Below are positions 52,501-64,000 of a DNA stretch of 64,000 nucleotides, in pieces. The first letter of the stretch is position 1. Every line of letters begins with the position of its first letter. The notes beneath the pieces were generated by a model. The model made no database searches and had not been told where the DNA came from. It was given only the letters and a program-made list of their open reading frames with translations. The translations under genes were made by a program, and so were the position numbers. The DNA comes from an uncultured SAR116 cluster alpha proteobacterium (GTDB lineage Bacteria; Pseudomonadota; Alphaproteobacteria; Puniceispirillales; Puniceispirillaceae): the NCBI GenBank assembly GCA_902520885.1, contig CABYPW010000009.1, positions 5,001 through 69,000 on the forward strand, given 5' to 3'.

Positions 52501-52670
52501 TTACCGATTTCAAACTTTACTTGGAACAATATTGGAGAGCACATGAGATGGAAATGGAAAATATTCAGACTGGAAAGTCTACAACTCTCTCATGGAACGA
52601 ATATAAATTCCGCGTCGATATATCAGAACGTGATTTTACACCTCAGGCACTTGAGCGTTCTTCGAGATAA
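49545..52670 (+). CDS. RND/MMPL transporter fused to a LolA-like lipoprotein-sorting domain
   Basis: A 1041-residue protein. Residues about 1-765 form an RND/MMPL transporter: an early helix, large periplasmic loops (LDTDGRVFMGPDNPDK), helices 2-6 with MIITLAVASTVHILSS, and the second repeat with VVDDTVHFILKYADARRRGAS. Residues about 773-795 (LLSAVGCLLLLPIMLSIKPVFAS, a 23-residue stretch given only as LLSAVGCLLLLPIML here for the core) read like a signal peptide kept inside the protein. The last 250 residues match the LolA-like outer-membrane lipoprotein-sorting family (MILKNKAGKESLRKF, WIFLPAIKRVKRI, YKFRVDISERDF). GTG start with GGAG nine bases upstream. The two parts are usually separate genes. 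Confidence 0.85.
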   Translation: MYEKNKFFDKFADFVVGKRNWLVPLTFVIAFIVYAGIPNLRLDTDGRVFMGPDNPDKQTLDLFEQEFAKDDNLNILFIPNDGVIFTPENLQIIDALTEDAWNLPYVRLVNSITRFQNTYSEGDMLVVEDLIPDPYSVTEEEALKAKKIAQSRIEIQRSLINDDASISAISIIFRLPGLDLASEIPAIMAEANPLIKKYRENYPNVNFQLTGSVPIGEAFAEASQKDGQSLTPAMLVAMLVIVGLLLKTALGVFSILLISVLSALVSLGALGWSFIPLNSATAVAPLMIITLAVASTVHILSSVRQTMVETTDRKIWAKKAISDHGLAISVAVFTTAIGFLSLNFSISPPFRQLGNMVAAGMVGIWVFTMFLLPALICWMPIRQAKASAFTDSLIMALCEWVIRYQKNLLIFIPIVIICFMAGITQIKLEDDFIRYFDERFEIRQANDFYEDNIGGLNVMEYPVETGIESGINSIEYLEKVESFTSFLRNQPEISNVRSITDIIKQLNQNMNGDDSSFYKLPDTDEEASQYLFLYELSLGYGMDLTDQINVDRSAVRITAYVPRTTTAELQELDSRVQNWFKKNAPELQSPVTGQTHVYTMISAKDVPAMLQGTTLALIFISGVILLVLRNIKLGLISLIPNLVPAAMAFGLWGYSVGSVTLAVSIVVAMTLGIVVDDTVHFILKYADARRRGASAENAVRHAFQKVGMALTITSFALVVGFIILGQSGFAVNRDLARLTAVTLTAALFIDFLFLPPLLIWVEKMRKDSLFKNVKLLSAVGCLLLLPIMLSIKPVFASNEKGLEIAEETSKRDDGFINFTVEGQMILKNKAGKESLRKFKTTTLENPDPREGDKGIIVFLEPRDVKGTSLLTHSKIEPEDDSQWIFLPAIKRVKRISSSNRTGKFVSSEFSYEDLGSEEVMDNEHIWLLDLPCPTDAELTCAKVESRPKNPRSGYSKRVSYTDLDQYRVHRIEFYNRRGDLEKILTFTDFKLYLEQYWRAHEMEMENIQTGKSTTLSWNEYKFRVDISERDFTPQALERSSR

Positions 52671-52699
52671 TACGAATTTATAAGTCGGCGAAATAACTA

Positions 52700-53896
52700 A
52701 TGCATAATTATTCGTTCTATATTTTTATTGTGTTGCATATTTCTGCTCCAAATATGGCTCATGCGTTCGATTACTTTGAGCAATATGGAAATTCTGAGTT
52801 AAAGGTAACTGGATTCATTGAGGACCCTTCTTATTCAGGTCAAAATAACATCTTCATGACACAACAGATTGAACCTTCTTTTTTTATTGAGCAAGGGTCC
52901 ATGGAAACACTCGTTAAGCCTCGCTTAAGAGTTGGAAATAATGGTGCGGGTAGAGTAGATTTAAGTGAAGCTCATATATCTTTTAGACATCAAAATTACG
53001 ACGTTCGAATCGGTTCAATTACAGAGTTTTGGGGAAAAACAGAGAGTTATAATCCAAGTGACATTGTGAATAGTTACGATTATACTTCTGGATTAGCTAG
53101 TTCTGAAAAACTGGGGGCACCAGCTTTTAAGCTGTCGTCTGAAATTTATGGCGGTTATGCCTCTTTTTACTTGTTTCCCCTGTTTGTAGAAAATGCCTAC
53201 CCAGGGGTATCGTCAAGACAAAGACTTCAAACATTGGTAAGTAATGATGTAGCAAGTTTTGCCAATAACGCATCTAGAAATGACAATAGCTTTGCTTTCA
53301 GATACGAAGGTTATTATGAAGACTTAGATTATGGTGTTAGTTATTTTGATGGTATATCGCGTGAACCATTTTTTATACCTGACGCCGATACACGCCTCTT
53401 GCCAGAATATGCTCCCATCCGTCAGATAGCAGTTGACCTGCAATATTTGTTAGGTGATTTAGCATTTAAAACTGAAATAGTTAATCGCTCTGGTCAGCGT
53501 AACGTGAATGGAGTTCTAGAGAATTATAATGCTGGAGTGTTAGGTATAGAAAAAAATAGATATGGGGTTTTGGGCAGCCAATATGATCTCGTTCTTTTTG
53601 GCGAAATATCTGCTGATAGTAGAGGAAATAATAGTCACACGATTTTCCAACGAGACCTAACTGTAGGAGGATCGCTTCTTCTTAATGATATTGATGATAG
53701 TGAATTTAGTCTATTTTTGACACAAGATTTGTCATATTCATCTGGAACAACTCGTTTTTCTTATTCTACAAGATTGAATGATTCATTTACGATTGAAGCT
53801 ATTTTAAATTTGTACTCAAATCTAGCTCAAGACCCTAGCCAATTACCCTTAGCAAAAGACAGCAGTGCTAATGTTACTTTTAACTATAATTGGTAA
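52700..53896 (+). CDS. Outer-membrane beta-barrel protein (DUF1302-like)
   Basis: A 398-residue exported protein with an N-terminal signal peptide ending near AHAF. Alternating polar and hydrophobic strands run throughout. It contains VRIGSITEFWGKTESYNPSDIVN, as in DUF1302-type barrels (quoted in part), and ends in NYNW, a terminal aromatic residue typical of BAM-assembled barrels. It is 29 bases downstream of the RND-LolA fusion, so the pair probably forms an inner-to-outer membrane export route for a lipid or hydrophobic compound. No partner lipoprotein gene is seen. Confidence 0.75.
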   Translation: MHNYSFYIFIVLHISAPNMAHAFDYFEQYGNSELKVTGFIEDPSYSGQNNIFMTQQIEPSFFIEQGSMETLVKPRLRVGNNGAGRVDLSEAHISFRHQNYDVRIGSITEFWGKTESYNPSDIVNSYDYTSGLASSEKLGAPAFKLSSEIYGGYASFYLFPLFVENAYPGVSSRQRLQTLVSNDVASFANNASRNDNSFAFRYEGYYEDLDYGVSYFDGISREPFFIPDADTRLLPEYAPIRQIAVDLQYLLGDLAFKTEIVNRSGQRNVNGVLENYNAGVLGIEKNRYGVLGSQYDLVLFGEISADSRGNNSHTIFQRDLTVGGSLLLNDIDDSEFSLFLTQDLSYSSGTTRFSYSTRLNDSFTIEAILNLYSNLAQDPSQLPLAKDSSANVTFNYNW

Positions 53897-53914: not shown

Positions 53915-54610
53915 CTAGGTCCTTGCAGCCTCGAAGGCTTCCCAAGCTTCCTTAAATTTTTCAAAATCAAAATCATTTTGTTTGGCCGGTTTCAAAATTA
54001 ACTGTTCAGTATCTAATAATTTATTGATTGAGCTTTCAAGGATACTTATTATATCCTTTGGAATAACCACGGCACCATGTCTATCGGCATGTATTAAATC
54101 ACCATCATTTATTTTTAATGAGAATATTGTAACAGAACAGGCAATCTCCTTCACATGCACGTATGCATGACTTGGCCCAACAGAACCTGCAAGAACGGGA
54201 AATCCATCAGGCAAGTCACCTAAATCACGCATTACACCATTTGTAAATGCTCCATACATTCCAAATCCTTTATGTATATTAGTGTTTACCTCTCCCCAAA
54301 AAGCACCAACACAGTTTGGAAAATCAATATCTTCTATAACTGCAACAGAAGGGCTGTTTGCTGTAGCCATATGCTCATAATAAGAAAGTCGGCGTTTTTT
54401 AATTACCTCAAAAGACTCTGTTGGAGGGCTAAGTGCAGTAATCTTTGCTGTTCTAGCATACCCACATATTGGTTTTTCATTTGGACTAGATGAAATCATT
54501 GTGCCTTTAGTAAAATCATTAAAGCCACGTTTTCCTTGTGCAACTTCGATTGCATTACATACAGTTGGTGTATCTATAGTTTCAAGGAGTTTAAAAAGTG
54601 ATTCTGTCAT
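53915..54610 (-). CDS. RraA/HMG-aldolase family protein
   Basis: A 231-residue RraA-fold protein. The family motif G-x20-RD is present around GAFTNGVMRDLGDLPDGFPV, where Arg-Asp bind substrate and metal, and GDLIHADRHGAVVIPKDI is typical. Aldolase members cleave 4-hydroxy-4-methyl-2-oxoglutarate or oxaloacetate-like substrates; RraA proper inhibits RNase E and lacks the HMG motif. This copy looks enzymatic. It is the last gene of the leftward SnoaL/MetE-like operon, 54 bases after the MetE-like gene, and would supply a final C-C cleavage. Confidence 0.78.
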   Translation of the reverse strand: MTESLFKLLETIDTPTVCNAIEVAQGKRGFNDFTKGTMISSSPNEKPICGYARTAKITALSPPTESFEVIKKRRLSYYEHMATANSPSVAVIEDIDFPNCVGAFWGEVNTNIHKGFGMYGAFTNGVMRDLGDLPDGFPVLAGSVGPSHAYVHVKEIACSVTIFSLKINDGDLIHADRHGAVVIPKDIISILESSINKLLDTEQLILKPAKQNDFDFEKFKEAWEAFEAART

Positions 54611-54664
54611 TTATATTACTCTATTTTTTAGTCTGCTTTTTAAAATAAAAAAGAATAGTATTTA

Positions 54665-55798
54665 TTAATTTTGTTCAGACGCGATTGCAGCACCTTTCAC
54701 AAGAGTTTCTAATTTTGCAAAAGCAATTTCCGGGTCTACGGCTCCAAATCCGGCAAAAGTTCCAAATCCACAGTCTGAGCCAGCAATTACACGTTCAACT
54801 CCAACAATATTGGTAAAACGCTTTAATCGCTGAGCGACAAGTTCGGGGTGTTCCACAAAATTTGTTGTGGAATCAATCACGCCAGGTATAAGAATTTTAT
54901 CCTCTGGTATTTCATTTTTTCTATTTTCAAAAATTGTCCATTCATGAGCATGACGTGGATTTGATGTCTCGAATAGTAAATAATTTGCATTTACAGACAT
55001 AAAAGTTGAAAACATACTATCCATGGATATGTCGCAGATATGCGGCCCTTCATAATTACCCCAACAAATGTGAACTCTAACATTTTTGGGATTAATTCCT
55101 TCAAGTGCATAATTAAGCGCTTCGACATGACTATTTGCAATTTTGATGAACTCTTTATCTGACAAATCGTTGAAAAGCATATGTCGTGATAGTGCAAGGT
55201 CTGGACAGTCGATTTGCAAATCAAGTCCGGATTCAACAATTAACTGATATTCAGCCTTCAAAGCATCTGCAAGTGCATGAAGATAAGTCTCCCTGTTTGG
55301 GTAGAAATTATTTTGTAAAAATAGGGATATTACACCAGGAGAAGCAGCATTCATAAAACCATGAATGTTGCCATATTTTTTAATCGCTGATTTCAAGTTT
55401 GAAATATCTTTTTTTAGTTCTGAGTTGCTTAACGGTTTAACTTCTCCTGTACACATTGGACGCGTATATTCTGGCGTGCCACCGCTATCAGCTAATCTTT
55501 GTAAGAAGGTGGGGAACATTATTAAATCTGCAGGCGCATTTCTAGGACTATCACCAGAAAATCCAGTATAACGATCTTTAACATATGTGGCATACGAAAT
55601 TTTTGATGTCTCTCCATCACTAACAATGTCAATACCACAATCTTTTTGACGAGAGACAATCAAATCAACATGTTTCTTCATCACCTCATCAAAGTGCGTA
55701 GCGTTATAAGCTTGGTTTTTCTCTTTACTAAATAGAAAGTCTGTTACCTCCTGAGATCTAGGAAGTGAACCAACATGTGTTGTGCGAATATGTGTCAA
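54665..55798 (-). CDS. Cobalamin-independent methionine synthase II-like zinc protein (EaCoMT-like)
   Basis: A 377-residue protein with only the MetE C-terminal barrel. It starts IRTTHVGSLPRS and keeps a zinc thiol-activation site: His243 and Cys245 in VRVHICWGNYEG, Glu277 in LLFETSNPRH and Cys343 in AGSDCGFGTFAGFG. The MetE N-terminal half is absent. The length equals that of epoxyalkane:coenzyme M transferase, a member of the same superfamily, so a thiol alkyl-transfer reaction is plausible. True methionine synthesis is unlikely from the context: adjacent cupin, SnoaL and RraA genes. It abuts the cupin gene with no gap. Confidence 0.82.
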   Translation of the reverse strand: MTHIRTTHVGSLPRSQEVTDFLFSKEKNQAYNATHFDEVMKKHVDLIVSRQKDCGIDIVSDGETSKISYATYVKDRYTGFSGDSPRNAPADLIMFPTFLQRLADSGGTPEYTRPMCTGEVKPLSNSELKKDISNLKSAIKKYGNIHGFMNAASPGVISLFLQNNFYPNRETYLHALADALKAEYQLIVESGLDLQIDCPDLALSRHMLFNDLSDKEFIKIANSHVEALNYALEGINPKNVRVHICWGNYEGPHICDISMDSMFSTFMSVNANYLLFETSNPRHAHEWTIFENRKNEIPEDKILIPGVIDSTTNFVEHPELVAQRLKRFTNIVGVERVIAGSDCGFGTFAGFGAVDPEIAFAKLETLVKGAAIASEQN

Positions 55799-56761
55799 CT
55801 ATTGATTCCTCTCAAACCAAGTAGGACCAGCTGCATCGTCTGTATTACTTACACGATATAAACTTGCTTCTCCTGACATTGATGGTTCTAACGTATAGTC
55901 ACATTTTGGTTCGATTAATGCTGTATCACCTGAGTTAAGTATTTCTTCGTGGCTACCGTAGGATAGTTTCCAATGCCCTTTAACAGGCATTAATACATCG
56001 TACCTATTTGATCCCATCTCTTTTATTGGGGTATAAGAAGAAAGGAAACTCACCTCAAATCCTGGTTTGTCAAATATAAGTCCATTTTCTCCAATTACAG
56101 GCACTTCGCCTTCTCTGGAAAGGGCAAGCATATCTTGGTATCTTGATACCCATCTGGGAACAATGTTTGTTATGCTTGGCTCTCCCATTAAATTTAAAGA
56201 GGCCTCATCCATTACCTCTTTCGGATTAATACCATCTGGGAGGGACTCTGATTTTTTTGTATCATATAACACACCATTTTCTCCAAGAATTAGACCGTGT
56301 TCCTTCGCTTCTTCAATAACTTGTGGAGCCCAAACTACGCCACCTCCCGCATCGTCACCTCCAAGTATTGCCATTATCATAGAGTAGTCTGTACCAATAT
56401 TTTCAAATCCTCTAAACATTCCGGTTGGAATATTAAAAATATCACCTGGTTCGAGTATTACTTCTCCTGTTTTTCCCCATCTTCCCCAAAAAAATCTCCA
56501 CTTTCCTGATAAAACAAAGAAAACCTCTGCTGTTCTATGAGTATGTAATGAGTTACGGCATTTAGGAGGTTGGCCTGCTGCTCCAATATTAAACCCTGGT
56601 GTTTTTTTTATATGAACATGTTGGTCAGCTGCTTCCGAAACTCCTCCTCCGATAATAGTAAAGTTTTCTTTTTTATCCGAACCAGGTGTATGAGCATCTA
56701 TAAACGCTGTTTTGCATGGTACGAGTTCACCATATCGAACAATGTGAATTGGTTTCGTCAT
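55799..56761 (-). CDS. Bicupin protein
   Basis: A 320-residue cupin protein with two barrel halves. The first holds a metal motif in CRNSLHTHRTAEVFFVLSG with HxH and a Glu, then GDIFNIPTGMFRGFEN. The second is degenerate: YDVLMPVKGHWKLSYG and GDTALIEPKCDYTLEP, without obvious His pair. It resembles gentisate-dioxygenase-like or other bicupin enzymes only in fold. It overlaps the SnoaL-like gene by one base and abuts the MetE-like gene. Role: possible ring or C-C bond oxygenase or isomerase; not settled. Confidence 0.75.
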   Translation of the reverse strand: MTKPIHIVRYGELVPCKTAFIDAHTPGSDKKENFTIIGGGVSEAADQHVHIKKTPGFNIGAAGQPPKCRNSLHTHRTAEVFFVLSGKWRFFWGRWGKTGEVILEPGDIFNIPTGMFRGFENIGTDYSMIMAILGGDDAGGGVVWAPQVIEEAKEHGLILGENGVLYDTKKSESLPDGINPKEVMDEASLNLMGEPSITNIVPRWVSRYQDMLALSREGEVPVIGENGLIFDKPGFEVSFLSSYTPIKEMGSNRYDVLMPVKGHWKLSYGSHEEILNSGDTALIEPKCDYTLEPSMSGEASLYRVSNTDDAAGPTWFERNQ

Positions 56762-57735
56762 TAATCTCTCCCCAAATGAAGATGAATTTGTTTCCAGATA
56801 GAAACATCATCAAATAAAGTATATTCGTTTCGAAGTCCCCAAGGACCAAATTCTGCATGGCTTATTCCCATAATATAAATATTTGCATTTGATGGGTGGC
56901 CAAACCGCCCCTTACCTTCATGCTTTCCAACTAAGGACCATCGTAAAGCAGCTCTTGGGGGCAAAAACGGATCTTCTCTTCCAATCTTATGATGAATTGT
57001 AAATGTTGCAGATGGCAGGGCATTGCGAAGAGATTTCCAAAAAGTTTCGATTTCAGTAAAACCAACAGCCATCATACCTTCAGGGTAATATCCTTTTCCA
57101 GCCCTATCATAATGATGCTGAATTATGTCGGTTTTACCGTTCATAATCGATCTTAGAATCTCAGAAAATAAATCGCCCCACTCATTATTATTTCCTGTTC
57201 CTGCGTACGGTCCTTTTAAATCCATAGAGGCAGAAAAAGGTTTAATACAATTTTCTATACCTCCTTCTTGTTGAATTTGTTTATATGCAAAATCAGCACT
57301 ATTATTTCCGAGTTGTTTAACAATACCTCCAACATCACGCACTAACCATTCGTCATCAATTTGATTGTTTTTTGCATGACAGTCTGCAATCACCCGATAG
57401 TGAATTTTTTTACCAGTAGGTTCTCCAAAGCTACCTTTGCCAAGATGAGTTGCTGTCGAAAATATTCGATGAGAAGATAACATGCCTCTTTCTGGAGAGC
57501 CTGACCAAATGACGTCTTCTCCTAGAAGTTGTCTGTCAGGAAATTCTGATAAAGTATCAAGAGTGGCCTTTATAACTGCCTTATTGCCTATAACAAGAGA
57601 GCTAGGAGAGCGCACAGGAATATCATCTGAATAATAATGATTTAATGTATCCACCTTTTTTTCTTCCCAGATCTCGTGTGTGATTCCCAGAATATAATTT
57701 GGAAAATTATCAAATCTACTATCAAACCCTTTCAT
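56761..57735 (-). CDS. SnoaL-like (NTF2 fold) protein with two domains
   Basis: A 324-residue protein made of two SnoaL/NTF2-like units. The first has NHYYSDDIPVRSPSSLVIGNKAVIKATLD and EWLVRDVGGIVKQLG (each in part). The second has HYDRAGKGYYPEGMMAVGFTEIETFW and EYTLFDDVSIWKQIHLH. The shared end pattern, an aromatic residue, two or three residues and Asp, recurs in the two sister genes. SnoaL-fold proteins cyclise, isomerise or dehydrate small molecules. It overlaps the LacI gene by 4 bases. No substrate can be named. Confidence 0.75.
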   Translation of the reverse strand: MKGFDSRFDNFPNYILGITHEIWEEKKVDTLNHYYSDDIPVRSPSSLVIGNKAVIKATLDTLSEFPDRQLLGEDVIWSGSPERGMLSSHRIFSTATHLGKGSFGEPTGKKIHYRVIADCHAKNNQIDDEWLVRDVGGIVKQLGNNSADFAYKQIQQEGGIENCIKPFSASMDLKGPYAGTGNNNEWGDLFSEILRSIMNGKTDIIQHHYDRAGKGYYPEGMMAVGFTEIETFWKSLRNALPSATFTIHHKIGREDPFLPPRAALRWSLVGKHEGKGRFGHPSNANIYIMGISHAEFGPWGLRNEYTLFDDVSIWKQIHLHLGRD

Positions 57736-58799
57736 TTATCACCCCCACAATTTTTCTTGGTAGAGGAGCGAATTATGAGTTCACCAGCTAGTTTAATATC
57801 GCCTCTTTTTAGAGGTTTATTTTCCATATAGCACATGAGAAGGAAAACTGTTTGTTGAACCATTTGCTCTATAGGTTGAGAAACTGTAGTCAGATCGTAG
57901 CTTGCTAACCGGGAGGGTGGAACATTATCATAACCGACAATTCCAATATCATCAGGTATTTTTAATCCGTACTCGAATCTTAAAACATCCATTACAATTA
58001 GAGCCATTGCGTCATTTGCAACGAAAATAGCCTCTGGTTTTTTTGAACTATTTATAATATTTAAAGCTGCATCTCGTGCCTGCTCACTCCTGAAATTTCC
58101 AACAGCTCTAGCACTAATGTTAAAACCATATTCCTCAAGTTTTTTTGAAAAGCCTGCTTCTCTATCGCGTTGAGTGGAGGCACCTTCCCATCCCGCAATA
58201 TAACCGAAGGAACGATACCCCTGTTTAATTAAATGTTCAGCTATCAGACCTCCACCAAGATAATTGTCTGTTGTAACTGAAGCAAATGAGGGATTATGTT
58301 GAATACGATTGAATTGCACTACCGGGATACCAGCGTTTTCACATTTTTCAGTCAATGCAGAAGATAGCGCGACAGACGCTGTTACAATTGCATCTATTTG
58401 ATACTCCAATATTTCCTCAACTACATTGTCTACATTACTTGCAGTTTGCGCTGCCATAAAAATAAGAACATGATAGCCCTCTTTTTGTAATGCGTTTGAC
58501 AGACGCTCAAGCACTTCTGGGTAAAAATAATTATCTAAATAGGCAACAACCAAACCAATCATATGGGAACGACCAGTAAGAAGAGACCGCGCTATTCTGT
58601 TTGGTCTATAACCTAATTCTTTTGCGGCATTTTGGACTTTTTCAACCGTTTTTGCTGATGCAGAAGCCCCTTTTGTGAACACTCTACTAACAGCTGATTG
58701 GCTCACTCCAGCGAGTTTTGCTACATCTTGGGATGTAATTTTTTGCTGGGCATGGTCATTTGCAAATACGATTGTTTTTATGGTCGAATCTTTTGACAT
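57732..58799 (-). CDS. LacI-family transcriptional repressor
   Basis: A 355-residue LacI/GalR repressor. The helix-turn-helix is at residues about 20-45 (ITSQDVAKLAGVSQSAVSRV), with the hinge SRVFTKGASASAKT and RPNRIARSLLTGRSHMIGLVV. The effector domain is type-1 periplasmic-binding-like, with FVANDAMALIVMDVLR and IGIVGYDNVPPSR. It is unusual in sitting in the middle of the operon it presumably controls, overlapping the gene before by one base and after by 4. The inducer is expected to be the imported substrate or its product. Confidence 0.9.
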   Translation of the reverse strand: MSKDSTIKTIVFANDHAQQKITSQDVAKLAGVSQSAVSRVFTKGASASAKTVEKVQNAAKELGYRPNRIARSLLTGRSHMIGLVVAYLDNYFYPEVLERLSNALQKEGYHVLIFMAAQTASNVDNVVEEILEYQIDAIVTASVALSSALTEKCENAGIPVVQFNRIQHNPSFASVTTDNYLGGGLIAEHLIKQGYRSFGYIAGWEGASTQRDREAGFSKKLEEYGFNISARAVGNFRSEQARDAALNIINSSKKPEAIFVANDAMALIVMDVLRFEYGLKIPDDIGIVGYDNVPPSRLASYDLTTVSQPIEQMVQQTVFLLMCYMENKPLKRGDIKLAGELIIRSSTKKNCGGDK

Positions 58800-59848
58800 T
58801 ACTGAACCTCACTTAACTTTACTTGACCAAGGTTGGTTCTGGGAAAAGCGAGCTCTTGCATTCTTGATATAACGTTCACATCAATTTGTGCCCATATATC
58901 AAGTAAATCAATCATAACCCAATTTTCCCGAATTTTATTTTTTTCTAATCTCCAGAAATCAAGTGAACGAAGAGTAATTTTATGGTTTGTGGGCGCTATA
59001 CCTAACCAGCCATCTCCAGTAAGTGTTTGTGACATATTCGGCCAACCTGTTACTGCCACATAGTTTTCCTCCGAAAAAAAGTGATGTGTTGTCTCTTCTG
59101 GATATTGGCCTCTATCTGGCATTGCCCTTAAAAACGGGATTTGGTGAAACTTTCGAAAACTTAAAACACCCCTACTACTTCCAATGCCAGAGGGCCCATA
59201 CCAATTAAATTTTGGGTTCCAGAATTTTTCAAGTTCCATAATCTTTTCATCCCCATATTTGGGATGCTTGCTCATAGCTGAGAGCATTTCCAATACAATT
59301 AATTTATTTTTCTCTCCTTCCTGCTCATTTGATTCATTACACTTTATGCCATCCTGAGTGGCAGGTGAGGGCACAAGCCATTCACGCCCTAGGGAAGGCC
59401 CCATTGGCCAGACATTAGCCTGCATCATCAAACTAGGGATATCCCAAATCGCTTGAATTTCAGAAACTTTTCCATCAGTGCATTTATAAAATTCGTGAAA
59501 TCTAATGTAGGCCAGGTGGCCAGTTGGTGGTATAGTCAAAAATGGGTTTACAAACGTACCTAAAAAATATCCTGCATTTCCTATCCAATATTCTCCATGA
59601 GCATCTTTGCCAGAAATACGAATTGTTTCTCGTCTCTCAAAATCTGGAAAGGAATAAAAAAGGGGTGCGTAGATTCTTTCATAAATAAGAGACGCTTCCA
59701 CATCTCCTATGGGATGAAAATAATGGCAAAAAGCTGAAGGATGAATTATTTCAGATAATAATTTTTGTGTTTCTCTTGGCTCAAAATTATAAAGTGCGGA
59801 AAAGAGAGGTGCCGTTATTTTTTCTGAAGAAGAATTATTTAGTGACAT
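58799..59848 (-). CDS. SnoaL-like protein with two domains
   Basis: A 349-residue protein of two NTF2/SnoaL-like units. The first contains ERIYAPLFYSFPDFERRETI, GNAGYFLGTFVNPF and a IQAIWDIPSLMMQANVWPMGPS segment (in part). The second contains EKFWNPKFNWYGPSGIGSSRG, VAVTGWPNMSQT and SLDFWRLEKNKIRENWVMID. That last run matches the run in the 59835 gene (DFWKVVDGKIIDNWVMVD), so the three SnoaL genes have a common origin. It shares its last base with the LacI start and overlaps the 59835 gene by 14 bases. Confidence 0.75.
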   Translation of the reverse strand: MSLNNSSSEKITAPLFSALYNFEPRETQKLLSEIIHPSAFCHYFHPIGDVEASLIYERIYAPLFYSFPDFERRETIRISGKDAHGEYWIGNAGYFLGTFVNPFLTIPPTGHLAYIRFHEFYKCTDGKVSEIQAIWDIPSLMMQANVWPMGPSLGREWLVPSPATQDGIKCNESNEQEGEKNKLIVLEMLSAMSKHPKYGDEKIMELEKFWNPKFNWYGPSGIGSSRGVLSFRKFHQIPFLRAMPDRGQYPEETTHHFFSEENYVAVTGWPNMSQTLTGDGWLGIAPTNHKITLRSLDFWRLEKNKIRENWVMIDLLDIWAQIDVNVISRMQELAFPRTNLGQVKLSEVQ

Positions 59849-60383
59849 TTGGACTACTTTCTTTCGACGGTGGACTTTTCATACCCTTATCAAATGCTTC
59901 CCATCCATGCCCTGAAAAACAATCGACGCCAAGCTGTGATAATACCGACGGATAATCAACCATCACCCAATTATCTATAATCTTTCCATCTACAACTTTC
60001 CAGAAATCCATATAACGAATTTCTACTTTCTTACCCGTTGGCTTGATGCCCATAAATTCACCACTATGGACTGCTTCTTGCCTGCCAAAAGCTGCTGCCC
60101 ATTCGCCCATATATAAGCGCGCTTCGTCGATACATACCTTATCTGAGAAGGCTGCCTGAAAAGGCCTTTGCCAATTATTTTGGAATTCCTCTAACCCTTT
60201 TTTTGTTCCACACCCATAATTACCCATCCATCTAAAATTGTGCGCAAAAAATTGGCCTATATCGTTAATTCGGTGGTCATTTAGTCCATCAACCATATCT
60301 TCTATAATTGATCGTGTTGCATCTGTTTTTGATAAATCGGTATCACGACTTAAAAGAGCTTGTTCTGGTCTTTTCCCTGCCAT
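59835..60383 (-). CDS. SnoaL-like protein, single domain
   Basis: A 182-residue protein with one NTF2/SnoaL-like unit: IGQFFAHNFRWMGNYGCG, FQAAFSDKVCIDEARLYMGEW (in part), FMGIKPTGKKVEIRYMDFW, then NWVMVDYPSVLSQLGVD. The GIKPTGKKVE and DFWKV..GKI..NW patterns are those of SnoaL-like polyketide-cyclase family proteins. It directly follows the ABC ATPase gene with a one-base overlap. Hence the operon continues from transport into catabolism without a gap. Confidence 0.75.
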   Translation of the reverse strand: MAGKRPEQALLSRDTDLSKTDATRSIIEDMVDGLNDHRINDIGQFFAHNFRWMGNYGCGTKKGLEEFQNNWQRPFQAAFSDKVCIDEARLYMGEWAAAFGRQEAVHSGEFMGIKPTGKKVEIRYMDFWKVVDGKIIDNWVMVDYPSVLSQLGVDCFSGHGWEAFDKGMKSPPSKESSPNVTK

Positions 60384-61456
60384 TAAGTTATCTCCTTAAT
60401 AAGTGTTCCAGTATCAGTATTAAAAAGATGGCAGGCACTATTAGCTATATTAATAGTAACAATGTCACCAATTTTTGCTGAGTAATCTTTGGCGGCCTTT
60501 ACAGATATTAAAGTGCCCGATATTTGAAATGATATCATGGTAGAGTCGCCGAGCAATTCAATTGAATAGATAGCAGAAGAAATTTCATTGCTATTTTTAG
60601 GCTTCGTTTTCGTTGTCTGAATAATAGCATCTTCTGCTCTAAATCCCACTGTAATATCGCCATCACCTATCTTAAATCCGTCCAGACGTATTGACCCTGA
60701 TTCAAATGTATTATTTTTAATTTTTCCTGGGATTAAATTCATAGCCGGGTTTCCAATAAATCCAGCAACAAATAAATTTTGGGGTTTATTGTAAATTTCG
60801 AAAGGAGTTCCAATTTGCTGGATGATGCCTTTATTTAAGACAACAACACGGTCTGCTAATGTCATCGCCTCTATTTGATCATGTGTTACATATAATGTGG
60901 TTACCTGCATCTCATGATGAAGGTGTTTAATCTGTGCTCTTGTTGATACCCTGAGTTTTGCGTCGAGATTTGAAAGAGGTTCATCCATTAAGAATACATT
61001 TGGTTCTCTGACAATTGCCCTCGCTAAAGCAACTCGTTGTCTCTGACCTCCAGAAAGTTCTGAAGGTTTACGATGTAAATACTCGGATAATTCCACCATT
61101 TCAGCTGCACGTTCTACACGTTTGGAGTGTGTATTAGGGTCGATCTTTCTAATTTTTAGGGGAAATCTAATATTTTCAAAGACATTCATATTGGGATATA
61201 AGCCATAAGATTGAAAGACCATCGCAACGTCTCTGTCTTTCGGTTCCATTTCATTCACTTTAATATCATTAATATAAATTTCGCCGGTAGTTTCTTGTTC
61301 AAGCCCTGCAATCATGCGCATTGTAGTGGTTTTACCACACCCAGATGGTCCTAATAATACCAAGAATTCTTTATCGAAAATTTCGAGGTTAATGTTATCT
61401 ACCGCAATAAATGGACCCCATTTTTTACTTAAGTTTTTAAGTGTGATACTCGCCAT
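60383..61456 (-). CDS. ABC transporter ATP-binding protein, MalK/UgpC type
   Basis: A 357-residue sugar-type ATPase. It has Walker A GPSGCGKTT, signature LSGGQRQRVALARAIV, Walker B FLMDEPLSNLD and H-loop YVTHDQIEAMT, then a TOBE/MalK-type C-terminus from FVAGFIGNPAMNLIPGK onward (KNNTFESGSIRLDG, VGFRAEDAI). It powers the MalF/MalG-type permeases encoded next to it. It is intact, unlike the remnant at 33617-34036, with which it shares the FxGxPAMNLIP run. Confidence 0.92.
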   Translation of the reverse strand: MASITLKNLSKKWGPFIAVDNINLEIFDKEFLVLLGPSGCGKTTTMRMIAGLEQETTGEIYINDIKVNEMEPKDRDVAMVFQSYGLYPNMNVFENIRFPLKIRKIDPNTHSKRVERAAEMVELSEYLHRKPSELSGGQRQRVALARAIVREPNVFLMDEPLSNLDAKLRVSTRAQIKHLHHEMQVTTLYVTHDQIEAMTLADRVVVLNKGIIQQIGTPFEIYNKPQNLFVAGFIGNPAMNLIPGKIKNNTFESGSIRLDGFKIGDGDITVGFRAEDAIIQTTKTKPKNSNEISSAIYSIELLGDSTMISFQISGTLISVKAAKDYSAKIGDIVTINIANSACHLFNTDTGTLIKEIT

Positions 61457-61464
61457 GAATTAAT

Positions 61465-62334
61465 TTATCCCTTTACTGCACCAGCTGTTAAACCACTTAC
61501 AATCTGACGCTGAAAAAACAAAACTAGCATAAATAACGGAACTGTTGCGGAAACCACTGCTGCAACAGCAAACATAACGTTTCCTTGTTCTTGGGCAGAT
61601 CCTAAAAATCCAGCTATTTTTGGGACCATCGTTTGGTTTGTTTCTGTTAGCAATAGAGCTGTTATTGCAAAATCGTTATAAGCTAAAAGAAAGCTAAATA
61701 GTCCAGTTGTTATAACCCCTGGCCACATTACTGGAATAATTACATGTCTAAAAGCTTGAAATCTCGTGCAACCGTCAACCATCGCACTCTCGTCAAGATC
61801 TTTTGGGATTGTTGAAAAAAATGAGTGAAGCATCCAGAGCGTGAAGGGTTGATTTATAGCAACTAGAACGACAATAGTTGTTGATAGATGACCCCATAAA
61901 CCAAGTTCGAAAAATGGCAGAAGATAACCTGAAACTAGCGTAATATGAGGCATCGCTCTAAATATAAGAGCTGCTATAAGTATCCAGAAAGCATATCTAA
62001 AACCAGACCTGGCTAAAGCATAGCCCCCTAGAGTGCCAAGCGTAAGAGAGATTGTTACTACGCAAAAAGTCACAATACCAGTATTTAAGGCAGCTCTCCA
62101 GAATTCTTCCTGAATCCAAGCTCCTTTGTATCCATTTAAAGTAAATATTCCCCCAGTCTCGACTAGCGTTCGAACACCAAAAATAGCGTTACGCCAGTCT
62201 TGCTTTGAGAAAAAATCAGCCTCTACTTTGAAACTACCCCAAAGTGTCCACAAAAAAGGAACAGAAGCGAGAATTAACCATATAATTATGAAAGATAAGC
62301 TCAATACATTTAGCCAGTTATTTTTTTTAGTCAC
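61465..62334 (-). CDS. ABC transporter permease, MalG type
   Basis: A 289-residue inner-membrane permease of the carbohydrate (CUT1) family. It has six helices: an N-terminal LSLSFIIIWLILASVPFLWTLW (in part), LGTLGGYALARSGFRY, RAMPHITLVSGYLLPFFELGLW (in part), and the EAA loop DLDESAMVDGCTRFQAFRHVIIP (in part). The C-terminus is FFQRQIVSGLTAGAVKG, the canonical CUT1 ending. It lies 8 bases upstream of the ATPase gene and 3 bases after the MalF-type gene. Confidence 0.9.
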   Translation of the reverse strand: MTKKNNWLNVLSLSFIIIWLILASVPFLWTLWGSFKVEADFFSKQDWRNAIFGVRTLVETGGIFTLNGYKGAWIQEEFWRAALNTGIVTFCVVTISLTLGTLGGYALARSGFRYAFWILIAALIFRAMPHITLVSGYLLPFFELGLWGHLSTTIVVLVAINQPFTLWMLHSFFSTIPKDLDESAMVDGCTRFQAFRHVIIPVMWPGVITTGLFSFLLAYNDFAITALLLTETNQTMVPKIAGFLGSAQEQGNVMFAVAAVVSATVPLFMLVLFFQRQIVSGLTAGAVKG

Positions 62335-62337
62335 TAA

Positions 62338-63375
62338 TCATACTCCAATTACCGGCTTATTTGCTTTCCAGGTCCTAACAATTACTGGTGTCATAAGTAT
62401 ACTGATGCCGATAATAGTAAGGATAGAAGTAGCAGCTGCGGAGCCAAACAGCATATTACCATCTCCACTTCTAAAATCATTATAAATTAGCCAAGACAAA
62501 GAAGTTGCGCTTGCTTGGGCGTTAAATCCCACAATTGGCTCAAATACTCGAAAATTATCCATCAGTTGAATAAGCGAAATAAAAACAGCCAGAGGCATCA
62601 AGTGCGGTATAATGACATAAAGTGTTTGTTCCCATCTATTTGCACCATCGATCATCGCACTTTCCAATGTATCTCTTGGAATTGTCTGTAAACCAGCGTA
62701 AAACACAACAAATGCAAAAGGAGCATGATGCCAAACTCCATAAACAAAAAGCATGACCCAAGTAAGCGTAGGCGATGCTTTTAGGGATAAGTTTGGGTCA
62801 TTAAAAATAATTTGTAATAAACTTCCAATTATTCCCTCTGCGTCTATCATCCAAAACAGCACAAGAGAGCCTATAAGAGGCGTAATGATCATAGGTAATA
62901 AGCAGATAAAAATTGTCGGCCCTTTAAAAAAAGAGGGTAGTCTGTTAACTGCTAACGCAATGAAAAAGCCAATAATTATTACTAGTGGTGTTACAATAAA
63001 GGTATACGCAAGTGTGAAACTTAGGGCTTTATAAAATGGTAGGTTAAATACTTCACTAAGGAAATCATTATAATTTTGAGACTCTTTCCAAGCTTGGTTT
63101 AGTTCACTAAAAGCAAGGTGGTTTCGATTTGTGTAAGTACCAAACCAGTTAAATCTACCGAGTGGTTTTTCCTCCTCTAGAACCTTTGTAGCCTCAAGAT
63201 CAACTCTAGTTTCCTTTTTGCAACCAAACGGAGTGCAATTTTCAACTACTACAAGAACTTTTTCATGTTCAATGAAAAAAGATTGAATGCTTATTGAGAC
63301 TATGGGTAGTGCGATGAAAATTAGCATCGCAAGTGCTGAAGGCCAAATAAACTTAAGAAAGGTATGGTGAGGCAT
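62338..63375 (-). CDS. ABC transporter permease, MalF type
   Basis: A 345-residue inner-membrane permease. It has a first helix at residues about 12-32, a long periplasmic loop (about 33-120) containing several Cys and charged residues, and then the permease core. The coupling loop is TIPRDTLESAMIDGANRWEQTL (in part). The extended loop recalls MalF. The large N-terminal segment could help dock a specific binding protein. It is separated from the binding-protein gene by a hairpin-containing gap of 98 bases. Confidence 0.88.
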   Translation of the reverse strand: MPHHTFLKFIWPSALAMLIFIALPIVSISIQSFFIEHEKVLVVVENCTPFGCKKETRVDLEATKVLEEEKPLGRFNWFGTYTNRNHLAFSELNQAWKESQNYNDFLSEVFNLPFYKALSFTLAYTFIVTPLVIIIGFFIALAVNRLPSFFKGPTIFICLLPMIITPLIGSLVLFWMIDAEGIIGSLLQIIFNDPNLSLKASPTLTWVMLFVYGVWHHAPFAFVVFYAGLQTIPRDTLESAMIDGANRWEQTLYVIIPHLMPLAVFISLIQLMDNFRVFEPIVGFNAQASATSLSWLIYNDFRSGDGNMLFGSAAATSILTIIGISILMTPVIVRTWKANKPVIGV

Positions 63376-63431
63376 TTTTTATTGCCCAAAGTTTGCTGAT
63401 AAGTTTTCGAAAATAAATGCTTTTTTAACGG

Positions 63432-63459
63432 GCACAGAGGGATTAAAATCCCTCTGTGC
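63432..63459 (-). other. Intercistronic hairpin between binding-protein and permease genes
   Basis: A perfect 11-base stem: GCACAGAGGGA at 63432-63442 pairs with TCCCTCTGTGC at 63449-63459 around a six-base loop, equally readable on the minus strand in which the genes run. On that strand CCCGTTAAAAAAG follows, without a T-run. It fits an RNA-stabilising stem rather than a full terminator. Confidence 0.75.
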
Positions 63460-63473
63460 GTTTTAATTATTGA

Positions 63474-64000
63474 TCAAAGAAAGCCTTTTTCAGTTGCTGC
63501 GGCAATGTAGGCTGCCTCAACATCCTCTAGAGCTTTTTCTGCAGTCTCATTACCCTGCAAGAAATCAACAATTTCAGCTCCAATTGCAGAATGCATTGCT
63601 CCAAAATAGGGTAGCATTGGATATGGAAGTGCGCCGCCACCAGCTGAAGCTAAAACACCAACACCAGCTGGATTAGGTTGAGCTCCTTTTATTAACCAGT
63701 TGGCTTTTTCGGCATTAGCGAGAGCCATTTGTGTTGATATACCATTCATCATCGCTTTGAAGGTGGCCTCTGCATCTTCATCTGATATATTTGTAGCAAC
63801 AGTGAAGCCATCCCACCATAAAGTTGTTGCTGGTCTGGAACCACCTGCTACGGTAGGTGCACTAGTAAATTTTGTGTTACTTTCTATTTCTGGTGTCGAA
63901 CCCTCTCCATCTGTGACTGGTCCTGCTCGTGATCCCCATAAATTGGTAAGAGCTACTTTTCCGGCTTCCCAGTCTGCCTGAACAGCGTTTGAGTCATAAG
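63474..64000 (-). CDS. Sugar-type ABC transporter substrate-binding protein, C-terminal part (cut by window edge)
   Basis: The frame is open from base 64000 down to the TGA at 63474, giving the last 175 residues or so of a family 1 extracellular solute-binding protein. Visible runs are YDSNAVQADWEAGKVALTNLWGSRAG, quoted in part, then TTLWWDGFTVATN and GGGALPYPMLPYFGAMHS, the sugar-site strands of CUT1 binding proteins. The signal peptide and N-terminal lobe lie outside. It is the first visible gene of the leftward operon with the MalFGK-type subunits and SnoaL genes. Confidence 0.88.
   Translation of the reverse strand, partial: YDSNAVQADWEAGKVALTNLWGSRAGPVTDGEGSTPEIESNTKFTSAPTVAGGSRPATTLWWDGFTVATNISDEDAEATFKAMMNGISTQMALANAEKANWLIKGAQPNPAGVGVLASAGGGALPYPMLPYFGAMHSAIGAEIVDFLQGNETAEKALEDVEAAYIAAATEKGFL

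What the first reader, a model, noticed from the sequence alone, without database searches (positions are those of the whole stretch)
53915..64000. Unassigned catabolic operon: MalEFGK-type importer, five SnoaL-like domains, bicupin, MetE/EaCoMT-like and RraA-like proteins
Eleven visible genes, mostly overlapping by 1-14 bases, form a single leftward unit with its own LacI repressor in the middle. A thiol-alkyl-transfer type zinc protein (His243, Cys245, Cys343), a cupin, three related SnoaL proteins and an RraA-like aldolase do not add up to any pathway I know. The MetE-like protein lacks the MetE N-terminal half and has the size of epoxyalkane:CoM transferase. A route for an alkylated or cyclic plant/algal compound, with thiol activation and final aldol cleavage, is one reading.
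Basis: partly seen in the sequence, partly recalled or inferred. Interest (0 to 1): 0.72.

Follow-up and report, generated by a model that had tools for sequence, protein, structure and literature searches.

The report
Conserved marine ring-degradation operon, possibly sunscreen-eating
Many ocean bacteria carry the same unstudied set of import and breakdown genes; its parts fit, but do not prove, a pathway that eats the UV-sunscreen compounds made by algae (mycosporines), for which we found no bacterial breakdown genes in print.

Summary
Eleven leftward genes form one unit that continues past the window: the binding-protein gene runs to 64700, and a further SnoaL gene and an amidohydrolase lie divergently. 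The set is conserved: MetE-like, SnoaL, cupin, LacI and importer genes stay together in roseobacters, SAR116 and others. The fuller version adds a HisD-type (HpsN-like) dehydrogenase and an SDR; close relatives of both sit on another contig of this genome. The MetE-like protein keeps the methionine-synthase zinc site (His, Cys, Glu, Cys) and homocysteine-type pocket motifs, not the EaCoMT ones. Its Phaeobacter inhibens counterpart has already been knocked out (PMC12366255), with no role found. My best reading, inferred and unproven: uptake and breakdown of mycosporine/4-deoxygadusol-type rings. SnoaL enzymes strip the amino acids, the MetE-like protein takes the O-methyl, the bicupin opens the ring, the HisD-like enzyme oxidises CH2OH, and an aldolase (RraA, or HpcH/HpaI in distant clusters) releases pyruvate. 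The carbon count fits exactly; the substrate and the SDR and hydrolase steps remain open.

The parts
53915..54610 (-). RraA-like aldolase/decarboxylase (231 aa), last gene of the operon; Arg128-Asp129 pair kept in at least 97% of 50 relatives
   Evidence: Pfam PF03737 56.9 bits; conservation
54665..55798 (-). MetE-like zinc protein, catalytic half only (377 aa, TTG start as listed); zinc site H243, C245, E277, C343; homocysteine-type motifs VGS11 and DGE63
55799..56761 (-). Bicupin (320 aa); H73, H75, E79 invariant in domain 1, usual motif-2 His replaced by invariant Arg117
56761..57735 (-). Tandem SnoaL-domain protein Sno2a (324 aa)
57732..58799 (-). LacI-family regulator (355 aa)
58799..59848 (-). 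Tandem SnoaL-domain protein Sno2b (349 aa)
59835..60383 (-). Single SnoaL-domain protein Sno1 (182 aa)
60383..61456 (-). ABC importer ATPase, UgpC/MalK type (357 aa)
   Evidence: NCBIfam PRK11650 442.8 bits over cut-off 432
61465..62334 (-). ABC permease, MalG type (289 aa)
62338..63375 (-). ABC permease, MalF/UgpA type (345 aa)
63474..64000 (-). Solute-binding protein, C-terminal part; the gene runs to window-equivalent 64700 (L003:11474-12700). Beyond it, at 64782-64799, a LacI-type operator TTTGCATACGTTTGCAAA, then divergent Sno2c (64881-65891) and Amidohydro_2 (65888-66754)

Best explanation
This is a LacI-linked, widely conserved catabolic operon that imports a sugar-like ring compound and degrades it to pyruvate and a C4 acid. 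[quoted passage not shown] Proposed steps: (1) the MalEFGK/Ugp-type importer brings the compound in [importer shown by family, ligand inferred]; (2) the SnoaL proteins, whose fold relatives handle cyclic 1,3-dicarbonyl-type polyketides, hydrolyse the amino acids off the cyclohexenone ring to give 4-deoxygadusol [inferred]; (3) the MetE-like zinc protein moves the enol O-methyl to homocysteine, giving methionine [inferred]; (4) the resulting cyclic reductone is opened by the bicupin [inferred]; (5) a HisD/HpsN-type dehydrogenase, encoded in the cluster in roseobacters and elsewhere in this genome, oxidises the CH2OH next to the tertiary alcohol to COOH [family shown, substrate inferred]; (6) the C7 product, 4-carboxy-4-hydroxy-2-oxoadipate, is cleaved by the RraA-type aldolase to pyruvate and oxaloacetate [family shown, substrate inferred]. 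Lactonase-like hydrolases (PcaD-like in roseobacters, Amidohydro_2 here) and the SDR act at steps I cannot place. No step has been tested biochemically.
For: Gene linkage: of 80 loci, Sno2a 74, Sno2b 71, cupin 69, LacI 68, HisD 64, SDR 64, hydrolase 58, RraA 50 (loci are cut at 10 kb or contig ends). This genome has a HisD-like protein 83% and an SDR 60% identical to those of the Ruegeria cluster, side by side on contig C15; in 17 of 32 same-order genomes with both, the HisD-like gene is within 8 kb of the MetE-like gene. The HisD-like protein is nearest to solved HpsN (376 bits) rather than histidinol dehydrogenase (259 bits); HpsN oxidises a CHOH-CH2OH end to a hydroxy acid (recalled). Aldolase end: HpcH/HpaI and no RraA in 7 of 7 distant clusters, as expected if a 4-hydroxy-2-oxo acid is cleaved. 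The C7 core of 4-deoxygadusol minus methyl, opened and oxidised, is exactly the C7 LigK-type substrate (chemistry worked out by me). MetE-like: methionine-synthase zinc and homocysteine motifs; of six loci whose MetE-like protein is 72-100% identical to the Croceicoccus one, four have a LigM-like O-demethylase homologue and folate C1 genes (L117, L121, L164, L165; not L163, L172). SnoaL: folds like polyketide cyclases; PhzA/B, which joins an amine to a cyclohexenone (recalled), is in the list. Minimal clusters of SnoaL genes and a transporter, with or without LacI, exist in Vibrio and Phaeobacter, and a review reports that Vibrio harveyi hydrolyses shinorine and porphyra-334 to mycosporine-glycine and 4-deoxygadusol (PMC3083659, passages).
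Against: No ligand or activity data. The MetE gene is absent from otherwise full clusters (L126, L127, L132, L160) and from five of the seven distant ones (present in L157 and L158 only), so demethylation is not always part of it. The C15 HisD-SDR pair of this genome is as similar to a SnoaL-free TAXI-transporter cluster (81% and 61%, L128) as to the Ruegeria cluster (83% and 60%), lies beside a TRAP-type binding protein and does not share the operator, so its membership here is not proven. The SDR and the PcaD-like hydrolase have no assigned step; this genome has only a 32% match to that hydrolase. RraA misses the LigK equivalog cut-off (19.3 of 304.5 bits). The bicupin lacks the motif-2 histidine of 3-His-1-Glu dioxygenases, and by Z its model ties with oxalate decarboxylase and seed vicilins. 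L-serine ammonia-lyase, expected beside a serine-releasing enzyme, is near the Vibrio SnoaL genes in 2 of 4 records only (L131, L180; not L181, L183). Several distant clusters use SSS, MFS, TRAP or TonB transporters instead of ABC. Two further Sno2a loci (L161, L162) show no aldolase and no HisD-like gene in the 20 kb fetched.
Confidence: 0.36

Rival explanations
1. Non-phosphorylative breakdown of a polyol, cyclitol or deoxy-sugar acid: SDR and HisD oxidise hydroxyls, SnoaL proteins act as dehydratases or isomerases, the cupin as an epimerase or isomerase, the lactonases open a lactone, and RraA/HpcH cleaves a 2-oxo-3-deoxy acid; the MetE-like protein is an accessory that removes a methyl ether.
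For: Binding protein nearest to sugar/polyol and sulfoquinovosyl-glycerol binders; LacI regulator; SDR nearest to KduD, under its cut-off; Amidohydro_2 related to fuconolactonase, under its cut-off; HpcH/HpaI and RraA both cleave 4-hydroxy-2-oxo acids (recalled); MetE optional.
Against: Three or more SnoaL proteins and a bicupin have no role in any sugar pathway I know (recalled); the MetE-like gene is hard to place; no kinase or IlvD-type dehydratase among the genes of the annotated Ruegeria cluster.
Confidence: 0.28
2. Breakdown of another O-methylated ring (methoxylated aromatic or pyranone) ending in the gallate/protocatechuate-4,5-type CHA aldolase, as in the sphingomonad clusters that carry a sister MetE-like gene.
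For: Croceicoccus and Novosphingobium loci join the sister MetE-like gene to a LigM-like protein, MTHFR, FolD, PurU and LigAB, in Croceicoccus also to LigK and the tautomerase.
Against: The annotated Ruegeria cluster has no aromatic-ring dioxygenase of the LigAB or Rieske kind; a MalE-type sugar importer and LacI are unusual for aromatics (recalled); the HisD-like enzyme implies a CHOH-CH2OH-type end.
Confidence: 0.13
3. One reading: EaCoMT-like thiol addition activates an epoxide or alkyl compound, followed by ring handling and aldol cleavage.
For: Same length and zinc-site frame as EaCoMT Xaut_4865.
Against: 25% identity; the Ser/Glu pocket motif is of the MetE/homocysteine kind, and EaCoMT has Asn/Arg there; no monooxygenase among the genes of the annotated Ruegeria cluster; MetE absent from several otherwise complete clusters. 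CoM biosynthesis genes were not searched for.
Confidence: 0.05
4. The MetE-like protein is a housekeeping or B12-sparing methionine synthase that has merely been captured by a sugar operon.
For: It is the only PF01717 protein in this genome, and PF02574 and PF02965 have no match here. A P. inhibens bmt mutant kept low growth without methionine, and its authors name the mes-like gene as one possible second methionine synthase (PMC12366255, passages).
Against: 57 of the 61 genomes searched have PF02574 and this one is 95% complete, so its absence looks like an assembly gap; the gene is fixed in one catabolic operon across classes; a P. inhibens strain with mutated MetH-like genes (mtgCDE) is reported as a methionine auxotroph although the genome holds a core-MetE homologue (PMC12478193, passages); the mes-like mutant still showed DMSP-dependent lag shortening.
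Confidence: 0.09

Closest known systems
Canonical MetE (E. coli b3829) and core-MetE (Vibrio MesD-type)
   Same: Catalytic half with His-Cys-Glu-Cys zinc site and the S/E pocket motifs
   Different: 21-23% identity; no folate half; the MetE His in the DIHSP motif is Thr here; sits in a catabolic operon
Epoxyalkane:CoM transferase XecA (Xaut_4865)
   Same: Length, fold family, zinc frame
   Different: 25% identity; pocket residues differ (Ser/Glu here, Asn/Arg in XecA)
DHPS degradation (HpsN-SDR-TRAP-sulfopyruvate genes, Leisingera caerulea L138)
   Same: LacI + HisD-like + SDR arrangement
   Different: HisD-like proteins 45-46% and SDRs 34% identical to those; no sulfopyruvate genes in the Ruegeria cluster; SnoaL, cupin, RraA added
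Protocatechuate 4,5-cleavage end (LigK/LigI)
   Same: RraA-type aldolase; Amidohydro_2 lactonase-like protein
   Different: RraA far under the LigK cut-off; no LigAB in the annotated Ruegeria cluster
SnoaL/AknH/IdmH polyketide cyclases
   Same: Fold and Pfam family
   Different: Mostly fused tandem domains, in a catabolic operon with an importer

Membership tests
MalEFGK/Ugp-type importer | UgpC/MalK ATPase, two BPD permeases, SBP_bac_1 binding protein | tested here: met
Canonical MetE | N-terminal folate-binding half | tested here: not met
   377 aa, catalytic Pfam domain only
Canonical MetE | Zinc ligands His, Cys, Glu, Cys | tested here: met
   H243, C245, E277, C343 align with E. coli MetE; kept in at least 97% of 80 relatives; metal content not measured
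Core methionine synthase (Mes) | Match above a curated methionine-synthase model | tested here: not met
   Best NCBIfam PRK04326 94.3 of 406 bits
Epoxyalkane:CoM transferase | CoM-type pocket residues (Asn/Arg as in XecA; their role is inferred) | tested here: not met
   Ser11/Glu63 instead
Epoxyalkane:CoM transferase | Coenzyme M biosynthesis in the genome | not tested
   no search was made
SnoaL-like cyclase superfamily | SnoaL Pfam match and fold | tested here: met
   AF2 model of Sno2a pLDDT 95.9, Z 15-17, rmsd 1.8-2.9, 119-139 residues aligned to SnoaL-like cyclases, mostly its first domain
SnoaL-like cyclase superfamily | Cyclase activity | not testable with these tools
   needs enzyme assay
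Bicupin ring-cleaving dioxygenase | Two cupin barrels | tested here: met
   AF2 pLDDT 81.5; Z 19.0, 3.4 A, 227 residues to YxaG, tied with oxalate decarboxylase Z 19.6 and vicilin Z 19.0
Bicupin ring-cleaving dioxygenase | 3-His-1-Glu metal site | tested here: not met
   HxHx3E present, motif-2 His is invariant Arg117; His48/His50 might replace it but lie in or beside a low-confidence stretch
CHA/HMG aldolase (LigK type) | RraA family with Arg-Asp pair | tested here: met
   PF03737; R128-D129 kept in at least 97% of 50 relatives
CHA/HMG aldolase (LigK type) | LigK equivalog score | tested here: not met
   19.3 of 304.5 bits
HpsN (sulfopropanediol dehydrogenase) | Closer to HpsN than to histidinol dehydrogenase | tested here: met
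   376 against 259 bits, C15 protein
HpsN (sulfopropanediol dehydrogenase) | Sulfolactate/sulfopyruvate genes in the cluster | tested here: not met
   none among the annotated genes of the Ruegeria cluster
Mycosporine catabolism (no family defined) | Growth on or conversion of an MAA | not testable with these tools
   bench test proposed

The most novel reading that the evidence does not exclude
This is the first gene set for bacterial catabolism of mycosporines/MAAs. SnoaL-fold hydrolases free the amino acids, a zinc MetE-like enzyme takes the O-methyl straight from an enol ether to homocysteine, and a bicupin and an aldolase carry the carbon ring to pyruvate and oxaloacetate. It would make SAR116 bacteria and roseobacters, and perhaps a saltern haloarchaeon, consumers of the ocean's main UV sunscreens.
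Probability: 0.32. Interest if true: 0.85.

Novelty: new variant of a known kind. Interest (0 to 1): 0.62.

Why it matters
A MetE-like protein at least 60% identical to this one is in 14 of 17 genera of the same-order sample (two more genera have only weak matches, one none), and the operon is in many roseobacters, so its substrate should be a common plankton product, yet I found no paper that names it. If the MAA reading holds, it gives genes, enzymes and a mutant strain with which to measure who consumes algal sunscreens in the sea. It would also add a folate- and B12-free O-demethylation to the MetE superfamily. Even if the substrate is another, a conserved, testable pathway with an existing P. 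inhibens mutant is waiting.

Tried and rejected
EaCoMT-like thiol activation: rejected as first choice on pocket residues and identity. Housekeeping methionine synthase: considered because this genome has no PF02574 or PF02965 match, thought unlikely since 57 of the 61 genomes searched have PF02574. Shared LacI regulon with the C15 HisD-SDR genes: the exact operator occurs once in the genome, in this operon's promoter; with up to two mismatches there are seven places in all, against four for the reversed control, and none lies on C15; not shared. In the 80 loci the core of the site is in 12, but many loci end before the promoter. Serine lyase next to Vibrio SnoaL genes: 2 of 4 records, so weak. 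Co-occurrence of MetE-like and HisD-like genes in 61 same-order genomes: 32 both, 6 MetE only, 12 HisD only, 11 neither, Fisher P 0.009, not corrected for relatedness; presence was set at about 60% and 65% identity by reading by hand. Homarine and DHPS as substrates: the homarine search gave no matching gene set; DHPS lacks the sulfo genes. Fold comparison cannot separate dioxygenase from decarboxylase or vicilin for the bicupin. A first, crude ORF call was replaced.

Literature searches behind 'not in print in this library': gene set; mycosporine degradation; MetE relatives. Only open-licence PMC papers are held. Papers seen: PMC3083659 passages; PMC12478193 passages; PMC12366255 outline, abstract and passages; PMC7857596 passages; the rest search listings only. 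Dunlap and Shick's own paper was not seen.

Full report
WHAT IS THERE. The window lies in contig C9 (5001-69000) of a 2.17 Mb genome; the nearest named relatives are SAR116-cluster and unclassified alphaproteobacterial genomes. Junctions from promoter to end: gap 98, 3, 8; overlap 1, 14, 1, 4, 1; gap 0, 54. Families: ten proteins; binding protein. The binding-protein gene continues to window-equivalent 64700. A divergent pair follows: a tandem SnoaL protein (64881-65891) and an Amidohydro_2 protein (65888-66754). Between them is a near-perfect palindrome TTTTGCATACGTTTGCAAAA, of LacI-operator type (type recalled), also found in the four other SAR116 loci whose promoter I examined (L005, L007, L008, L009). 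Its 18-base form is the only exact copy in the genome.

CONSERVATION. They are mostly roseobacters, Roseibium and SAR116, with a few others, 69-100% identical in the MetE-like protein. In those 80 loci: Sno2a 74, Sno2b 71, cupin 69, LacI 68, HisD-like 64, SDR 64, alpha/beta hydrolase 58, MalG 57, MalF 54, Sno1 54, RraA 50, SBP 39, MalK 20, SAM-methyltransferase 12, Sno2c 6. Loci are cut at 10 kb or contig ends, so these are lower bounds. The annotated Ruegeria AD91A cluster shows the full order: amidohydrolase and ester cyclase divergent; UgpC, SBP, two permeases, ester cyclase, HisD, ester cyclase, SDR, LacI, ester cyclase, cupin, SAM-methyltransferase, MetE-II, alpha/beta hydrolase, RraA. 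The window is a reduced form. A HisD-like protein 83% and an SDR 60% identical to those of Ruegeria sit together on contig C15, beside a YtoQ-like gene (name recalled) and a TRAP-type binding protein (name from sequence, not from a search). Against a simple reading, they are equally similar (81% and 61%) to the pair of a SnoaL-free TAXI cluster, L128. In 17 of 32 same-order genomes that have both genes, the HisD-like gene is within 8 kb of the MetE-like gene.

VARIANTS. Seven (L153-L159) are distant clusters with HisD-like, LacI, Sno2a and hydrolase genes in all seven, SDR in six (weak in L159) and the cupin in five (not in L155, L158). All seven have an HpcH/HpaI aldolase by tblastn, four of them checked by Pfam, and none a RraA; the MetE gene is in L157 and L158 only. 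Transporters there include MFS, SSS, TRAP and TonB types. Of the other three, L160 is a full cluster with RraA and without MetE, L161 has SnoaL, cupin, LacI and importer but no HisD or aldolase, and L162 only Sno2a and a methyltransferase. Further full clusters without MetE: L127, L132, and L126 with the cluster in two blocks. Minimal sets: Vibrio pelagius has four SnoaL proteins around an ABC importer, Phaeobacter piscinae has SnoaL proteins, SBP, permeases and LacI, and V. europaeus has one tandem SnoaL protein with an MFS transporter, porin and LacI. A haloarchaeon from a saltern (Halobellus limi) has an importer, five SnoaL proteins and the MetE-like gene. So SnoaL plus a transporter is the recurring theme.

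THE MetE-LIKE PROTEIN. It shares 21% identity with E. coli MetE, 23% with a Vibrio core-MetE and 25% with EaCoMT Xaut_4865. The zinc residues of MetE align with H243, C245, E277, C343. The positions of E. coli Ser433 and Glu484 (homocysteine contacts, recalled) are Ser11 and Glu63; EaCoMT has Asn and Arg there. The MetE His of the DIHSP motif (recalled as the folate-side acid) is Thr in this protein. This favours homocysteine as acceptor and a donor other than methyl-folate. Marine core-MetE homologues with the four conserved residues are noted in PMC12478193 as of questionable function (passages). PMC12366255 made a P. inhibens mes-like mutant (PGA1_c27430); it kept DMSP-dependent lag shortening, and the gene remains a candidate second methionine synthase for its authors (passages). 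I mapped the published primers on four roseobacter loci (L059, L075, L078, L017). The upstream forward primer falls in the cupin gene in all four (1-4 mismatches over 21 bases), the downstream reverse primer in RraA in all four (3-4 mismatches over 21), and the downstream forward primer just past the MetE stop in three of four (2-4 mismatches over 19); the other three primers match only at 5-9 mismatches, which serves as a rough chance level. So PGA1_c27430 is almost certainly the MetE-like gene of this operon. Six loci have a MetE-like protein 72-100% identical to the Croceicoccus one; four of them (L117, L121, L164, L165) also have a LigM-like aminomethyltransferase and folate C1 genes, and two (L163, L172) only an NTF2-like neighbour. 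More distant L166 (47%) has PurU only, and L171 (44%) none of these.

CUPIN, SnoaL, HisD, RraA. The bicupin model (pLDDT 81.5) lists quercetin 2,3-dioxygenase, 3-hydroxyanthranilate dioxygenase, oxalate decarboxylase and salicylate dioxygenase among its first ten by Foldseek. By VIA-align the Z scores are tied: oxalate decarboxylase 19.6 (7.2 A, 259 residues), YxaG 19.0 (3.4 A, 227), salicylate dioxygenase 19.0 (3.4 A, 235), vicilin 19.0 (4.5 A, 244). Its one sequence hit in the PDB is acireductone dioxygenase at E 0.009, which is weak. The metal motif is incomplete (Arg117 for the motif-2 His). Sno2a is a fused pair of SnoaL domains (pLDDT 95.9) nearest to polyketide cyclases; PhzA/B, ketosteroid isomerase and limonene epoxide hydrolase also appear. 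The C15 HisD-like protein is nearest to HpsN. RraA keeps its Arg-Asp pair.

MECHANISM PROPOSED. Mycosporines carry amino acids on a 2-methoxycyclohexenone with C5 bearing OH and CH2OH (structure recalled). Removal of the amino acids gives 4-deoxygadusol, and removal of the methyl gives a cyclic reductone. Dioxygenolytic opening gives HOOC-CH2-C(OH)(CH2OH)-CH2-CO-COOH, and oxidation of CH2OH gives 4-carboxy-4-hydroxy-2-oxoadipate, the C7 substrate of LigK-type aldolases (recalled), which yields pyruvate and oxaloacetate. Thus MetE-like, cupin, HisD-like and RraA each receive one step, with SnoaL at the front. That Vibrio harveyi converts MAAs to mycosporine-glycine and 4-deoxygadusol is reported in the review PMC3083659 (passages); the passages name no genes. 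In the four Vibrio records an L-serine ammonia-lyase is near the SnoaL genes in two and not in the other two.

WHAT IS SHOWN AND WHAT IS NOT. Shown: the operon, its conservation, families, zinc and pocket motifs, the palindrome, the outlying HisD-SDR pair, the aldolase swap, and (by primers) the identity of the published mutant's gene. Inferred: substrate, order of steps, demethylation, ring opening, and that the C15 pair works with this operon. Open: the roles of the SDR, hydrolase and amidohydrolase, why MetE is optional, and what the extra SAM-methyltransferase does.

VERDICT. I rank the MAA reading first (0.36) over a polyol/sugar-acid route (0.28).

Noticed in passing
window 49545-53896: A large RND-type membrane protein with an extra C-terminal part, followed by an outer-membrane-like protein (both named from sequence, not from a search); both families neighbour the operon in the other SAR116 loci (families f13, f15).
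   Followed up: no
whole genome G000: No PF02574 and no PF02965 match although 57 of the 61 genomes searched have PF02574: an assembly gap, or an unusual methionine supply.
   Followed up: partly
L118, L122 (Rhodococcus, Dietzia plasmids): MetE-like sister next to a 2OG-Fe oxygenase, a phytanoyl-CoA-dioxygenase-family protein, an HD-domain protein and a YaaH transporter: another unexplained pathway; the last pair recalls PhnY/PhnZ.
   Followed up: no
L123 (Marinovum algicola plasmid pMaD9): The operon is followed by SBP56 and DMSP demethylation genes; SBP56 also lies near the minimal cluster of Phaeobacter piscinae (L134).
   Followed up: no
L125, L128: HisD-SDR pairs with TAXI/TRAP transporters, LacI and HpcH or RraA aldolases, without SnoaL in the stretch: a related short pathway for some hydroxy acid or diol.
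   Followed up: partly
L117, L121: In sphingomonads the MetE-like sister, an NTF2-like protein and folate C1 genes (one annotated dihydroneopterin aldolase) join protocatechuate/methoxy-aromatic degradation genes.
   Followed up: partly
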